Below the pieces are notes generated by a model, which was given only the letters and a program-made list of their open reading frames with translations, did no database searches and was not told where the DNA came from. Shown here in pieces: positions 50,470-63,385 of a stretch of DNA of 64,000 bases. A program made the translations under genes and the position numbers. Every line of letters starts with the position of its first letter. Position 1 is the first letter of the stretch. Source of the stretch: Microbacteriaceae bacterium VKM Ac-2854 (GTDB lineage: Bacteria > Actinomycetota > Actinomycetes > Actinomycetales > Microbacteriaceae); the NCBI GenBank assembly GCA_013205085.1, contig JABMLH010000003.1, forward strand, positions 657,154-721,153. The letters run 5' to 3'.

Positions 50470-50770
50470 CGGTCTACAGGATCGGGCGTGCGCCGCTCGC
50501 ACCCCGCGCATCCGCGAACCACGCGACGACGGTGAGGCCCGCGAGGTCGCAAGATCGTTGCCGGGGGCGGCCACGACCTCCAGGTCGATAGTGCGGCCGT
50601 CGCACGGCTGCACCTGGTCGAGGCGTATTCTGCCGCGTGATGAAGTGCTGATTTTCAGATCTAAGGCCCTCGGCGAGTAGATGTAACACTTATGAAACAC
50701 CTAGGCACAAATTGCCTGATATTCTACGACGTAGACCCATCCTGAGCATTGATTCGAAAGTTGACCCCCC
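50470..50770. other. Region between the left KDPG aldolase and ridA
   Basis: No convincing gene is seen in about 300 bp. A reverse-strand frame ending at 50474 (LAGLTVVAWFADARGASG near the stop) and an overlapping frame (RTIDLEVVAAPGNDLATS) may be remains of one broken gene, but I cannot identify it. The right part holds a motif shared with the 58.9-kb promoter region and a 13-bp palindrome TCTACGACGTAGA at 50723-50735. Confidence 0.4.
50686..50700. promoter_or_regulatory. Motif ACACTTATGAAACAC shared by both halves of the catabolic module
   Basis: It matches 58945-58959 at 13 of 15 bases. It lies 71 bp upstream of ridA. It is a candidate operator for a common regulator such as the Lrp-type protein at 53539. 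Confidence 0.5.
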
Positions 50771-51151
50771 ATGACCGACAGTCTCGTTCGCACCCCGGGA
50801 CAGAGCCCGCTTCTTCCGGGGACCGTCTCCGCCGGCGGCTTCACGTTCACTTCGGGCCTGGTCTCGCCGTCCGCTCTCGCAGCGATCGAATCGGGCGTCG
50901 ATTCAGTACCCGCCGAGGTGCAGATCCGCGAAACCGTGACGCTGCTGCGCACCTCGCTGGCCGAAGCCGGGACGACCCTCGATCGGGTCGTGCGCGTGGA
51001 GTCCTACCTGTCATCCGCGGACCTGATCGGAACGTGGAACGAGGTCTTCCTGGAGGTGTGGCCGGAGCCCGGCCCGGCCCGTATCACCCTCGTCGCCGGT
51101 TTCATCAGTCCCGTCCTGCACTTCGAGCTGCAGGCCGTGGCCTTCGCATGA
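50771..51151 (+). CDS. RidA-family (YjgF/UK114) protein
   Basis: This 126-residue protein has the family pattern FTSGLVSPS near the N terminus, RVVRVESYLSSADLIGTWNEVF, and ARITLVAGFI at the usual place of the conserved arginine. RidA proteins hydrolyse reactive enamine/imine intermediates made by PLP enzymes or amine-oxidising flavoenzymes. It starts at ATG 50771 with little ribosome-site support and overlaps the next gene by four bases. The pairing with an FMN dehydrogenase and an aminotransferase suggests imine clearance in the module's pathway. Confidence 0.88.
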   Translation: MTDSLVRTPGQSPLLPGTVSAGGFTFTSGLVSPSALAAIESGVDSVPAEVQIRETVTLLRTSLAEAGTTLDRVVRVESYLSSADLIGTWNEVFLEVWPEPGPARITLVAGFISPVLHFELQAVAFA

Positions 51152-52227
51152 CCGGGAGCCTCGCTGCGACGTGGCCGACTCTCGAGGTGATCAGGACGGC
51201 CGGCCTCGCCCGACTTACTCCGACGATCCTCGACTTCCTCGAGCGCGGTTCAGGCGACGAAACCACACTGAACCGCAATAGAGAGCAGTTCTCCCGATGG
51301 GGATTCTCACCTCGTCCGATGAGTGGTCTCGCTGCCCCGAGCCTGTCGACAACCCTGTTCGGGCATCAGCTCGCCCTGCCGGTGCTGACGGCGCCATTCG
51401 GCGCTGACCGCCTGTTCCACCCCGACGGACAGCGGGCCGTCGTGCGATCCGCCGCAGGCGCGGGAGTTCTGAGCATCGTCCCCGAAGCGAGCTCGTTCCC
51501 ACTCGAACAGTTGCGCTCGGATGCTCCGGCCAGCGCGAAAGTCGGCCAATTCCATCCCATGGGAGCACCGGAGAACGTCTTACGGATCATCCGCCGGTAC
51601 GAGGCTGCGGGATACGAGGCCCTCTGCGTCACGCTCGACTGCCCGACTCCTGGCTGGCGGGAGCACAATCTCCGCAACGGCTACGTGATCTCTTCCGACG
51701 TAGTGGGCGGTAACTATCCACCTGGCGATGAGGTCGCCATGGAGCAGGCTCTCGGTCAACTGTTCCCCCACGACGAACCGGTATGGAGCTGGGAACAGCT
51801 CAGCAGGATGATGGCCAACACCTCACTCCCCTGGATCGCGAAGGGCATCCTGGACCCGATCGATGCGGGCGCAGCTGTGACGGCAGGAGCATCGGCGGTC
51901 CTCGTCTCGAATCACGGCGGACGGCAGCTCGACGGTGTTCCGTCCTCGATCGAGGCGCTCGCGCCTATCGCTTCCGAGCTGGGAGGCCAAGTGCCGGTGC
52001 TGCTCGACAGCGGCATCAGAACAGGAGCAGACATCATCAAGGCCGTCGCGCTCGGCGCCGACGCGGTGGTGATCGGACGACTCGCAGCCTATGGGCTGGC
52101 TGCTGCCGGCCAGAGCGGCGTCGACCGCGTCTTCGAGCTTCTCGCCGCAGAGATGAAGATCATCCTCACCCTCCTGGGACACGGCTCGATCGGCGACATC
52201 GGGCCTCAGGCGCTTCTGCGCCTGTGA
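51148..52227 (+). CDS. FMN-dependent alpha-hydroxyacid dehydrogenase/oxidase
   Basis: This 359-residue TIM-barrel flavoprotein of the LldD/glycolate-oxidase family has the active-site histidine in VLVSNHGGRQLDG near residue 254 and the arginine in DSGIRTGADIIKAVALGADAVVIGR. It oxidises an L-2-hydroxy acid to a 2-oxo acid. ATG 51148 overlaps the ridA stop (ATGA). The sequence differs enough from typical lactate enzymes that I leave the substrate open. Confidence 0.92.
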   Translation: MTGSLAATWPTLEVIRTAGLARLTPTILDFLERGSGDETTLNRNREQFSRWGFSPRPMSGLAAPSLSTTLFGHQLALPVLTAPFGADRLFHPDGQRAVVRSAAGAGVLSIVPEASSFPLEQLRSDAPASAKVGQFHPMGAPENVLRIIRRYEAAGYEALCVTLDCPTPGWREHNLRNGYVISSDVVGGNYPPGDEVAMEQALGQLFPHDEPVWSWEQLSRMMANTSLPWIAKGILDPIDAGAAVTAGASAVLVSNHGGRQLDGVPSSIEALAPIASELGGQVPVLLDSGIRTGADIIKAVALGADAVVIGRLAAYGLAAAGQSGVDRVFELLAAEMKIILTLLGHGSIGDIGPQALLRL

Positions 52228-52274
52228 CGACAGACGCAACCTCGTACCGCATTCGATACAGCAAGGATCCGCTC

Positions 52275-61818: not shown

Positions 61819-62525
61819 GCGTCAGCCCCGACGTCGTCATCAATACGGACACGCCGCGCGTCCCCGACGAACTCCTCGAGGCCCTGCGCGAGCTGGACCT
61901 GCCCACCTTCGGTCACCTGCTCGAGTCCGGATTCGCCGAGGGCCTGCAGCACATCGTCGGACCCGCCGCACTCGCCGTCGGCCGCGTCGTCACCGTCAAG
62001 CTGCTCGACACCGACTCGCGGATGCTGCATTACAGCACCGCCCTGGTCCAACCCGGCGACTTCGTCGTCATCGAGGCCGGAGCGAACGTGCGCTACGCGA
62101 GCGTCGGCGGCGGCATCGCCGGCGCCTTCGCAGCCGCCGGAGTCGTCGGAATCGCCGTCGACGGACGCTGCACAGACATCGTTGAGCTGCGTGAATCGGG
62201 CATGGCCGTCTACAGCCGAGGCCTCTCCCCCTTCACCACCCGCAGCAACGGCGGACCTATCCGCGGCTCCATCAACGTACCCGTCTCCGTCGGCGCCATC
62301 GCGGTGACGCCGGGCCTCATCGCGCTCGGCGACGAGAACGGACTGCTGTTCGCTACAGCCGAGCAGGTCGAGGCGCTCATTCCCCGCGTGCACGAGCTTC
62401 TCGCGTGGGAGCCGCCTGCCATGGCGCGCGTCCGAGCCGGAGAACGCCTCGCCGACATCCTCATCCCCGCCGACGATCTCGCCCACCTCAACACCCTCGC
62501 TCAGAGAAAGGCCACCACCTCGTGA
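61815..62525 (+). CDS. RraA-family protein (HMG aldolase/oxaloacetate decarboxylase-like)
   Basis: This 236-residue protein has the RraA-fold signature. YASVGGGIAGAFAAAGVVGIAVDGRCTDIVELRESGMAVY contains the GGxxA loop and the conserved Asp-Gly-Arg and downstream Asp that bind metal and substrate. Catalytic members cleave 4-hydroxy-4-methyl-2-oxoglutarate or decarboxylate oxaloacetate. ATG 61815 overlaps the ATPase stop and the stop overlaps the next aldolase. Retention of the catalytic residues suggests an enzyme rather than an RNase inhibitor. Confidence 0.9.
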   Translation: MSVSPDVVINTDTPRVPDELLEALRELDLPTFGHLLESGFAEGLQHIVGPAALAVGRVVTVKLLDTDSRMLHYSTALVQPGDFVVIEAGANVRYASVGGGIAGAFAAAGVVGIAVDGRCTDIVELRESGMAVYSRGLSPFTTRSNGGPIRGSINVPVSVGAIAVTPGLIALGDENGLLFATAEQVEALIPRVHELLAWEPPAMARVRAGERLADILIPADDLAHLNTLAQRKATTS

Positions 62526-63271
62526 CCGCGAAATTCGCCGCCTGGTTCAGCACTCCCAACATCGCCGGACTCGAAATCGTCGCGCAGGCCGGATACGCCA
62601 CCGTGATCTTCGACGCCGAGCACGGCAACTTCGACCTCGCCGACCTCAACCGCACCATTCCGTTCGCCAAGGCACTCGGGCTCACCGTGCTGATCAAGGT
62701 CTACGCCCCAGAGCGTGCGCCGATCCAGCAGGCGCTCGATTTCGGAGCCGATGGCGTGATCATTCCGCACATCCTCGACGCAACCCACGCCGCAGCTGTC
62801 TGCAGCTTCGCCAAGCTGCCTCCCCTGGGCGATCGAAGCCTCGCCGGCGGCCGGACCATGAGCTACCGCGGCTTCGATGCCAACTGGTCGGCAGCGCAGG
62901 ACCGCGCCACGCTCTGCCTGCCTATGGTCGAAGATCCCGCAGCACTGGACGACGTCGACGCCATCCTCGCCCTGGACACCGTCGACGGCATCTTCATCGG
63001 CCCCGGCGACCTGTTCGCCCGACGCGGCGGCGGCGGATACCGCATCACCGTTTTCGAGGAGAACACCCTTCGAGCCCTCGGACGTGCCGCCCGAGCCGCC
63101 GGCAAGCCGTGGATGATGCCCGCATGGTCCGAGATCGAACAACGCATCGCGCTCGAAGAGGGAGCCGACACGATCGGCGTGCTCCAGGAGTTCGCCGCGC
63201 TGCGCCTCTCATTCGAAGCATCACTCGCCGCAGCGCGCTCTCTCGCGGAGACCACGCCTGGCCCCGCCTGA
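62522..63271 (+). CDS. HpcH/HpaI-family 2-oxo acid aldolase
   Basis: This 249-residue TIM-barrel class II aldolase has IFDAEHGNFDLADL (acid residues), ALDFGADGVIIPHI and LPMVEDPAALDDVDAILALDTVDGIFIGPGDL. Family members reversibly split 4-hydroxy-2-oxo acids to pyruvate and an aldehyde. GTG 62522 overlaps the RraA-like gene by four bases. Two 2-oxo-acid-cleaving families in tandem behind an amino acid importer suggest stepwise cleavage of a hydroxylated 2-oxo acid. Its stop overlaps the start of a truncated frame at 63271. Confidence 0.92.
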   Translation: MTAKFAAWFSTPNIAGLEIVAQAGYATVIFDAEHGNFDLADLNRTIPFAKALGLTVLIKVYAPERAPIQQALDFGADGVIIPHILDATHAAAVCSFAKLPPLGDRSLAGGRTMSYRGFDANWSAAQDRATLCLPMVEDPAALDDVDAILALDTVDGIFIGPGDLFARRGGGGYRITVFEENTLRALGRAARAAGKPWMMPAWSEIEQRIALEEGADTIGVLQEFAALRLSFEASLAAARSLAETTPGPA

Positions 63272-63372
63272 TGGACCCGAACCAGGACGACGGTCAAGGA
63301 GAGCTCAGCACCGCCGGCCAAAACGCCGCTGAGAATACCCGCACCGGAACCATCATTCTCGGCTACAACTGA
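63271..63372 (+). pseudogene. Truncated 33-codon frame at the module edge, possibly universal stress protein N terminus
   Basis: ATG 63271 shares a base with the aldolase stop (TGATG), so it is translationally coupled. The frame ends with TGTIILGYN just before the repeated eda segment begins. TIILGYN resembles the first strand of UspA-type proteins, where a DGS-type loop would follow. The rest is missing, so it is probably a gene cut by the rearrangement. The family assignment is weak. Confidence 0.35.
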
Positions 63373-63385
63373 AATCGCTGACGTT

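What the first reader, a model, noticed from the sequence alone, without database searches (positions are those of the whole stretch)
50682..63385. Compact catabolic module of unknown substrate: RidA, FMN dehydrogenase, aminotransferase, M20, lactonase-like, RraA and HpcH/HpaI around an amino-acid importer
Eleven to twelve genes in three tightly coupled units carry complementary chemistry. A family 3 amino-acid importer could deliver a conjugate, M20 could remove an acyl group, and the aminotransferase gives a 2-oxo acid. HpcH/HpaI and RraA-type enzymes could cleave a hydroxylated 2-oxo acid, the COG3618 protein could open a lactone, the FMN enzyme oxidises a 2-hydroxy acid, and RidA clears imines. 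I know of no described pathway with this exact set. A substituted hydroxyglutamate or its lactone/N-acyl form is one guess. Motifs are read from sequence, reaction classes are from known families, and the pathway is inference.
Basis: partly seen in the sequence, partly recalled or inferred. Interest (0 to 1): 0.8.

Follow-up and report, generated by a model that had tools for sequence, protein, structure and literature searches.

The report
Catabolic cluster for capped amino acids
Ten of the thirteen genes in this stretch also lie clustered in three other genomes of the same bacterial family, and together they likely import an amino acid with blocked ends, would unblock it, and are predicted to split it into pyruvate and an aldehyde; this matters because two of the enzymes are variants that lack the arginine on which their studied relatives depend.

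Summary
The genes are there, intact and tightly packed: 13 open reading frames at 50771-63271. MFS, Lrp, M20, aminotransferase, COG3618 hydrolase, three importer genes, RraA and HpcH lie within 9.7-10.4 kb, in one shared order, in three other Microbacteriaceae. RidA, the FMN enzyme and FUSC are absent there, so they look like local additions. All three carry an eleventh gene, a second TIM-barrel hydrolase, that this genome lacks. The cluster is rare. Three family labels mislead. The binding protein lacks both residues of the amino-acid clamp. HpcH has Lys for the catalytic Arg (120 of 120 checked). RraA has Thr for its essential Arg. The HpcH and RraA variants recur together elsewhere. Best reading: catabolism of an N-blocked, probably lactone-closed, gamma-hydroxy amino acid. 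Hydrolases uncap it, the aminotransferase makes a 4-hydroxy-2-oxo acid, HpcH cleaves that. The substrate is unproven. The module sits between two copies of the 3' part of an eda gene: the left lacks its 5' part, the right runs into an insertion sequence at the contig end.

The parts
49833..50406 (-). Left copy of eda (KDPG/KHG aldolase), 5'-truncated; the listed ORF 49834-50700 is a chimera whose first ~98 codons are not eda
   Evidence: Pfam Aldolase over residues 100-276 only; identical to right copy over 49859-50371; last 41 nt 95% like the eda 5' part on contig C17
50771..51151 (+). RidA-like protein (local addition, not in the conserved core)
   Evidence: PF01042; 0 of 3 close clusters
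51148..52227 (+). FMN-dependent 2-hydroxy-acid oxidase/dehydrogenase (local addition)
   Evidence: PF01070; nearest solved structures lactate, glycolate and hydroxymandelate oxidases; 0 of 3 close clusters
52275..53558 (+). MFS transporter (core)
   Evidence: PF07690; 49-52% identity in 3 of 3 other clusters
53539..54087 (+). Lrp/AsnC-type regulator (core)
   Evidence: PF01037, PF13404; 46-49% in 3 of 3; start codon chosen by me
54099..55316 (-). FUSC-family membrane protein (local addition)
   Evidence: PF13515; 0 of 3 close clusters and 0 of 100 loci
55351..56688 (-). M20 metallohydrolase, predicted N-acyl/peptide-bond hydrolase (core)
   Evidence: PF01546; NCBIfam PRK07906 542.9 bits over cut-off 382; nearest solved chain aminoacylase-1; 58-60% in 3 of 3
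56685..57887 (-). Fold-type I aminotransferase of LysN/KAT-II type (core)
   Evidence: PF00155; nearest solved chains 1x0m, 3aov and 1wst (multiple substrate aminotransferase), then 2-aminoadipate and kynurenine/aminoadipate aminotransferases; 65-66% in 3 of 3
57888..58856 (-). COG3618-type TIM-barrel hydrolase, predicted lactonase (core)
Evidence: PF04909; aligned to 4dlf; 58-64% in 3 of 3.
59058..59993 (+). Family 3 solute-binding lipoprotein lacking the amino-acid clamp (core)
   Evidence: PF00497; T138 for Arg, S228 for Asp; 47-53% in 3 of 3
60038..60997 (+). ABC permease, polar amino-acid type (core)
   Evidence: PF00528, TIGR01726 over cut-off; 64-72% in 3 of 3
60994..61818 (+). ABC ATPase, polar amino-acid type (core)
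   Evidence: PF00005; 72-75% in 3 of 3
61815..62525 (+). RraA-like protein, variant with Thr at the HMG/CHA-aldolase Arg-123 position and a TTR motif (core)
   Evidence: PF03737; 58-60% in 3 of 3
62522..63271 (+). HpcH/HpaI-type lyase, variant with Lys at the HpaI Arg-70 position (core)
   Evidence: PF03328; 74-77% in 3 of 3
63385..63923 (-). Right copy of the eda 3' part, cut at 63924 by an insertion-sequence end
63924..64000 (.). End of a multi-copy insertion sequence (IS481-like by recollection, family not tested); contig C12 ends here
   Evidence: seven further copies of the element end in this genome, each at or within 28 bases of a contig end; contig length 721153

Best explanation
Ten of the thirteen genes form a conserved cluster, likely catabolic, that likely imports an amino acid whose amino group, and probably carboxyl group, is blocked, and that is predicted to unblock it, transaminate it and cleave the resulting 4-hydroxy-2-oxo acid into pyruvate and an aldehyde. 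Shown: the clustering in four genomes, the shared order in the other three, the intact frames, and the residue changes in the binding protein, HpcH and RraA. Inferred: the binding protein takes a ligand without a free alpha-amino group and without a free alpha-carboxylate, for which an N-acyl gamma-lactone of a gamma-hydroxy amino acid is the simplest case. The COG3618 hydrolase would open the lactone and M20 would remove the N-acyl or peptidyl group, in either order. The LysN/KAT-II-type aminotransferase would then give a 4-hydroxy-2-oxo acid, and the Lys-type HpcH would break its C3-C4 bond. The Lrp protein would sense the freed amino acid and MFS would move a product or substrate. The RraA variant is probably a dedicated partner of the Lys-type HpcH; its reaction is the least certain step (a second lyase, dehydratase or decarboxylase). 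RidA, the FMN oxidase and FUSC are probably local additions.
For: Clustering: MFS, Lrp, M20, AT, COG3618, SBP, permease, ATPase, RraA and HpcH lie within 9.7 kb (L023), 10.4 kb (L111) and 9.8 kb (L113) at 46-77% identity. In the protein searches, relatives of COG3618, HpcH and SBP have the same longest-contig length several times (141048, 22662 and 1428026 occur in all three lists). Blocked ligand: the column of the alpha-carboxylate-binding Arg is Thr in 28 and Val in 1 of the 29 closest SBPs, own included (Arg in the 3 distant ones), and the column of the alpha-amine-binding Asp is Asp in 0 of 32. In LAO these residues are Arg77 and Asp161; the opine receptor NocT has Ser for that Asp, keeps the Arg, binds N-substituted arginine and does not bind arginine (passages of PMC4192606 and PMC5740067). 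Deacylation: nearest solved M20 chain is aminoacylase-1. Lactone opening: COG3618 aligns over 295 residues with 4dlf, including the HxH and SD(W/F)PV motifs. Lyase: His, Glu and Asp of the HpaI site are kept in the best 120 of 368 relatives, own included; Lys-type HpcH sits beside an aminotransferase and a semialdehyde dehydrogenase in Agrobacterium and beside RraA and a gene annotated 5-guanidino-2-oxopentanoate decarboxylase in Shinella. Pairing: of 100 fetched loci plus this one, the RraA variant is in 12 of 19 with Lys-type HpcH, 0 of 15 with Arg-type only and 0 of 67 without HpcH.
Against: No substrate or product was measured. HpcH Arg70, important in HpaI, is Lys in this subfamily, and RraA Arg-123, whose change to Ala abolished activity in HMG/CHA aldolase, is Thr, so ordinary pyruvate-aldolase chemistry may not hold for either. 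In this genome no aldehyde dehydrogenase is among the 13 genes. The conserved second TIM-barrel hydrolase of the three other clusters gave no match in this genome, so the pathway may be incomplete or changed. More distant COG3618 relatives sit in other settings: UxaA-like plus Arg-type HpcH (L036, L040), alanine-racemase/D-threonine-aldolase-like protein with RidA and an AstE/AspA-type deacylase, or FMN-enzyme relatives (14 of 80 loci), so the fold does not fix a lactone substrate. Lys-type HpcH also occurs without a neighbouring aminotransferase, beside nitrilase-type and TRAP genes. The three order genomes found with HpcH at E <= 1e-60 (G587, G640, G421) do not carry the ten-gene set.
Confidence: 0.42

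Rival explanations
1. The cluster degrades an amino-sugar acid or sugar-acid conjugate: COG3618 opens an aldonolactone, and the HpcH and RraA proteins act on a 2-oxo-3-deoxy sugar acid.
For: The one NCBIfam match of COG3618 is L-fuconolactonase, and HpcH matches include 2-keto-3-deoxy sugar-acid aldolases. Alphaproteobacterial relatives of COG3618 lie beside UxaA-like and Arg-type HpcH genes (L036, L040, names by eye). The island lies between a plant-cell-wall-sugar locus and a hexuronate operon (names by eye). An RraA-like protein is a sugar-acid dehydratase/decarboxylase in alginate catabolism (passages of PMC8563752).
Against: Scores are far under the curated cut-offs (fuconolactonase 91 of 400; GarL 72.1 of 406.75). 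A polar amino-acid-type importer, M20, Lrp and a LysN/KAT-II aminotransferase travel with the cluster in all four genomes; the window's eda, LacI and RhaM genes from the flanking sugar loci gave no match there at E <= 1e-5.
Confidence: 0.2
2. The cluster degrades an opine-like or peptide-like conjugate with no lactone; COG3618 and the second TIM-barrel hydrolase cut amide bonds, and HpcH acts on the 2-oxo acid of a gamma-hydroxy or acidic amino acid.
For: Asp-to-Ser in the SBP is shared with the opine receptor NocT. Variants elsewhere swap the importer for a dipeptide-type (L024) or sugar-type (L114) system and M20 for another hydrolase (names by eye), and Lys-type HpcH keeps company with carbon-nitrogen hydrolase and creatininase families.
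Against: NocT and OccJ keep the carboxylate Arg that is lost here. None of the 13 genes matched an opine-oxidase family. COG3618 proteins with known function, as far as I recall, are lactonases.
Confidence: 0.25
3. Assorted catabolic genes with no common pathway, brought together by chance and transfer.
For: RidA, FMN oxidase and FUSC do not recur in the close clusters, the unit order differs in this genome, and the region is bounded by repeats and an insertion sequence.
Against: Ten genes recur as one cluster in three other genomes, and there are five 4-bp overlaps here.
Confidence: 0.05

Closest known systems
HpaI / GarL / RhmA class II pyruvate aldolases (PF03328)
   Same: Fold family, catalytic His, metal-binding Glu and Asp
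   Different: Lys for the enolate-stabilising Arg70 in the best 120 relatives; 81.8 bits against the HpaI cut-off of 368.8
HMG/CHA aldolase LigK/ProA (RraA fold, PF03737)
   Same: RraA-like fold family and metal-ligand Asp
   Different: Thr for the essential Arg-123, new TT(R/K) motif; LigK model 59.4 bits against 304.5
COG3618 lactonases (L-fuconolactonase, LigI)
   Same: PF04909 fold, HxH and SDxPV motifs
   Different: 91 bits against a fuconolactonase cut-off of 400; own identity group at 50% or more, next hit 45%
Opine uptake and catabolism (NocT/OccJ systems)
   Same: Family 3 receptor that gave up the alpha-amine Asp; importer next to its degrading enzymes
   Different: The carboxylate Arg is lost as well; no opine-oxidase match; adds aminotransferase and lyase-family proteins
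Gallate/protocatechuate 4,5-cleavage (LigI-LigJ-LigK)
   Same: COG3618-type lactonase plus RraA-type protein
   Different: No ring-cleavage dioxygenase among the 13 genes; amino-acid-type importer, aminotransferase and M20 instead

Membership tests
HpaI-type class II pyruvate aldolase | PF03328 domain over its gathering score | tested here: met
   59.5 bits, cut-off 25
HpaI-type class II pyruvate aldolase | Catalytic His and metal-binding Glu and Asp | tested here: met
   invariant in the best 120 of 368 relatives, own included
HpaI-type class II pyruvate aldolase | Arg70 that stabilises the enolate | tested here: not met
   Lys in 120 of 120; role of Arg70 from passages of PMC8560999
HMG/CHA aldolase (RraA fold) | Metal-ligand Asp-124 | tested here: met
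   Asp kept in own and nine other aligned RraA proteins
HMG/CHA aldolase (RraA fold) | Arg-123 | tested here: not met
   Thr in own and three orthologues; Arg123Ala inactive and Arg123Lys 181-fold lower kcat in passages of PMC5065237
Amino-acid-binding family 3 receptor | SBP_bac_3 fold | tested here: met
   58.3 bits, cut-off 26.4; AlphaFold model pLDDT 87.8, Foldseek top hits amino-acid receptors
Amino-acid-binding family 3 receptor | Arg for the alpha-carboxylate and Asp for the alpha-amine | tested here: not met
   Thr or Val in the 29 closest sequences, Arg in the 3 distant ones; Asp in 0 of 32
COG3618 lactonase | PF04909 fold with HxH and SDxPV metal motifs | tested here: met
L-fuconolactonase | NCBIfam equivalog cut-off | tested here: not met
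   91 bits of 400
COG3618 lactonase | Lactone hydrolysis | not testable with these tools
   needs enzyme assay
M20 amidohydrolase (PRK07906 subfamily) | NCBIfam subfamily cut-off | tested here: met
   542.9 bits of 382
Gallate/protocatechuate 4,5-cleavage pathway | LigK equivalog | tested here: not met
   59.4 bits of 304.5

The most novel reading that the evidence does not exclude
The cluster is a full food pathway for N-acyl homoserine-lactone-like molecules: the signal is imported, its ring opened by COG3618, its tail removed by M20, the homoserine transaminated, and the Lys-type HpcH releases pyruvate and formaldehyde. The Lys-HpcH/Thr-RraA pair would be a previously undescribed two-protein C-C lyase system shared by Actinobacteria and Proteobacteria.
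Probability: 0.1. Interest if true: 0.85.

Novelty: new variant of a known kind. Interest (0 to 1): 0.52.

Why it matters
It turns a list of family names into a defined ten-gene module (eleven genes elsewhere) with a testable substrate class. It also exposes two paired variants, Lys-type HpcH and Thr/TT-type RraA, that carry aldolase names although each has lost the arginine on which the studied aldolases depend. Assigning their reaction would bear on the naming of at least the 120 HpcH relatives checked here (of 368 found at E <= 1e-50).

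Tried and rejected
RidA, FMN oxidase and FUSC as members of the conserved pathway: rejected for the close clusters, 0 of 3. Against that, distant FMN relatives lie in 14 of 80 COG3618 loci and in one Lys-type HpcH locus (L138), and RidA relatives in 2 of 80, so a link in other organisms stays open. 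Gallate/protocatechuate cleavage: rejected, LigK model far under cut-off and no ring-cleavage gene among the 13. A plain L-fucose or L-rhamnose lactone pathway: not supported, far under the curated cut-offs.

Plasmid origin: relatives of COG3618 (114 records) and HpcH (26 records) exist on plasmids of Alphaproteobacteria and one Betaproteobacterium, all under 60% identity, so no close plasmid source was found. Empty insertion site: not found; only 1 of the 14 other genomes of the genus has an eda relative at E <= 1e-40, at 54% identity. Surveys of HpcH (E <= 1e-50) and of the SBP (E <= 1e-45) in the phylum gave only this genome, 1 of 396 each. The sequence 50395-50790 has one weak second match in the genome, about 43 bases at 82%. 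The two element copies fetched both stop at contig ends, so the insertion-sequence family was not tested.

An error of mine: the MFS query was out of frame, so that call did not test MFS; searches used the right frame. In one search I had left out five Arg-type loci that one search had shown; one search includes them.

Papers: of nine searches, those aimed at the pathway or gene set gave no description of it; some searches were about residue roles. I saw listings and abstract starts, and passages only of PMC5065237, PMC8563752, PMC8560999, PMC4192606 and PMC5740067. The library holds open-licence papers only, so this is no proof that it is undescribed.

The structure model showed the expected receptor fold but gave no coordinates for a pocket analysis, so it did not help with the ligand.

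Full report
Observation. The region 50771-63271 holds 13 intact open reading frames in three units, with five 4-bp overlaps. Two genes were not in the finding's title: an MFS transporter (52275-53558) and a FUSC-type membrane protein (54099-55316).

Boundaries. The module is flanked by a direct repeat made of the 3' part of an eda gene (KDPG/KHG aldolase): 49833-50406 and 63385-63923, identical over 513 bp (49859-50371 against 63411-63923) with a few mismatches at one end. The left copy lacks its 5' part beyond about 50406. The right copy stops at 63924, where an inverted-repeat-ended element begins. Seven further copies of that element end occur in this genome, each at or within 28 bases of a contig end. 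Contig C12 ends at window position 64000. Contig C17 begins with the other end of such an element followed by the missing 5' part of eda and a sugar kinase, and then by genes that I read as uronate isomerase, LacI, mannonate dehydratase and fructuronate reductase (names by eye, not by profile search). The bases next to the element on both contigs repeat GCTAGT, which the left eda copy has once there, as expected for a target-site duplication. So an insertion sequence probably split a hexuronate-operon eda, and the module lies between that broken eda and an extra truncated copy. Integration of a circular DNA carrying an eda fragment would give this picture, but no empty site was found and it rests on one draft assembly.

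Co-occurrence. I tested these 80 with tblastn for the window's genes (MFS, out of frame there, was redone). One locus, L023 (Microbacterium sp. CPCC 204701), held the set. A survey of 398 family genomes gave 4 with COG3618 at E <= 1e-70, this genome included. Two of the others carry the full set: L111 (G168) and L113 (G384), whose contig lengths 3643329 and 272612 equal those of Conyzicola lurida and Agrococcus jejuensis records, so these names are inferred. The third (G391, L114) has a variant. All three named organisms are Microbacteriaceae. In L023, L111 and L113 the core order is the same: M20, HpcH, RraA, ATPase, permease, SBP on one strand, COG3618 diverging, then Lrp and MFS, then the aminotransferase; L111 has an extra, Arg-type HpcH gene between Lrp and MFS. 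In this genome the blocks are rearranged: M20 has joined the aminotransferase-COG3618 unit. RidA, FMN oxidase and FUSC have no match at E <= 1e-5 in these three loci of 20.9, 20.0 and 15.6 kb, the last cut by a contig end. All three have a further TIM-barrel hydrolase next to the aminotransferase (60-62% to the L111 protein, nearest solved chain 2qpx), with no match in this genome at E <= 0.001. HpcH at E <= 1e-60 was found in 4 of 396 order genomes, this one included, and the other three lack the ten-gene set; at E <= 1e-50 it was found in 1 of 396 phylum genomes, that one being this genome. The cluster is therefore rare and patchy.

Results that cut the other way on RidA and the FMN enzyme. 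Relatives of the FMN enzyme (32-35%) lie in 14 of the 80 COG3618 loci and one (33%) beside the Lys-type HpcH of Shinella (L138); RidA relatives (31%) lie in 2 of the 80, and a RidA gene is annotated beside a COG3618 relative in Rhizobium. These are distant loci, so I keep both as local additions here, but a wider functional link is possible.

Residues. (a) Binding protein: aligned with AncQR and other solved receptors, the Arg of the TITEERKK-type motif is Thr138 and the Asp of the VVTD-type motif is Ser228. In an alignment of 32 sequences (own included; the 219-aa fragment P0270 of 33 hits was left out) the first column is Thr 28, Val 1 and Arg 3 (the three most distant), and the second is Ser 22, Gln 8, Thr 2. 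In LAO the corresponding residues bind the alpha-carboxylate (Arg77) and the alpha-amine (Ser72, Asp161), and the opine receptor NocT has Ser in place of that Asp, keeps the Arg and does not bind arginine (passages of PMC4192606 and PMC5740067). The mapping of LAO numbers to these columns is mine. (b) HpcH: His, Glu and Asp of the active site are invariant, but the Arg70 position is Lys in 120 of 120 sequences (the best 120 of 368, own included). (c) RraA: the Arg-123 position is Thr in this protein and three orthologues, and Thr or Asn in variants from other loci, which share a TT(R/K) motif.

A paired variant. Of the 100 loci that I tested, plus this one, 19 have Lys-type HpcH, 15 have only Arg-type, and 67 have no HpcH hit at E <= 1e-5. 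The RraA variant is in 12 of the 19, 0 of the 15 and 0 of the 67; the first two differ with Fisher p = 0.00014. An earlier count on 30 loci gave 12 of 19 and 0 of 10. The loci are not independent (several Agrobacterium and Shinella relatives) and not a random sample (found with COG3618 or HpcH; 13 of the 26 HpcH plasmid records were fetched; some Arg-type loci are under 9 kb), so the p value is only a guide; L111 has both types and was counted as Lys-type. In the plasmid collection 7 of 26 records with HpcH have an RraA relative (E <= 1e-15) within 5 kb, while RraA occurs in 33 of 72,556 records; the seven include two Shinella plasmids of equal length and two Ensifer plasmids. Neighbours of Lys-type HpcH include carbon-nitrogen hydrolase, creatininase-family protein, Lrp, an aminotransferase with a semialdehyde dehydrogenase and a 2-oxo acid decarboxylase. 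Three plasmid records fetched for neighbours had no annotation, and in one the HpcH was Arg-type.

Mechanism. The receptor has given up both residues that hold a free amino acid, so the imported molecule is likely blocked at nitrogen and carboxyl. M20 and COG3618 are the enzymes that would remove an N-acyl group and open a lactone. A gamma-hydroxy amino acid freed in this way would, after transamination, be a 4-hydroxy-2-oxo acid, the substrate class of HpcH/HpaI enzymes. This single chain uses M20, COG3618, the aminotransferase and HpcH once each, which is why I prefer it; RraA has no sure step. The weak points are the altered arginines of HpcH and RraA, the missing eleventh gene in this genome, and the lack of any measurement.

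Comparison with the known. Each gene belongs to a known family, but HpcH, RraA and the SBP each fail a defining residue test, so I do not file them as HpaI aldolase, HMG/CHA aldolase or amino-acid receptor. The cluster would work like an opine or N-acyl amino acid pathway with a lyase ending. No described pathway with this set was found in the five searches aimed at it in an open-licence library.

Noticed in passing
49833-50406, 63385-63923 and start of contig C17 (L006): eda (KDPG aldolase) is present as a 5'-truncated copy on one side of the module and as a copy split by an insertion sequence on the other; the split gene seems to end a hexuronate operon on contig C17.
   Followed up: partly
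63924-64000: The window ends at a contig end inside a multi-copy insertion sequence; copies of its end sit at ends of contigs C2, C6, C7, C9 and C12.
   Followed up: partly
L023 14160-15284, L111 16295-17431, L113 14032-15213: An eleventh conserved gene, a TIM-barrel hydrolase like 2qpx of unknown function, follows the aminotransferase in the three other clusters and gave no match in this genome.
   Followed up: partly
L119, L126, L129, L130, L137, L138, L141, L142: Lys-type HpcH and Thr/Asn-type RraA occur together in Proteobacteria and Actinobacteria, often beside carbon-nitrogen hydrolase or creatininase-family genes: a pair of unknown joint function.
   Followed up: partly
28589-29853: A tRNA-Arg (ccg) gene lies close to a 291-aa ORF on the minus strand that looks like a phage-type tyrosine integrase, possibly a relic of an integrated element (by eye, not tested).
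   Followed up: no
36831-49819: A large secreted protein that looks like a rhamnogalacturonan lyase, a GH42-like enzyme, a sugar ABC importer, two LacI regulators and a RhaM-like protein: a plant cell-wall sugar locus next to the module (names by eye, except LacI at 48268).
   Followed up: no
L026, L034, L048, L131: Alphaproteobacterial relatives of the COG3618 protein are clustered with an alanine racemase/D-threonine-aldolase-like protein, an AstE/AspA-type deacylase and, in three of the four, RidA: a different set of unknown substrate (names by eye in the first three).
   Followed up: no
L055, L063, L068, L069, L071, L073, L075, L081, L083, L088, L094, L095, L097, L101: Relatives of the FMN enzyme lie near COG3618 relatives in 14 of 80 loci; whether this reflects a sugar-lactone pathway was not examined.
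   Followed up: no
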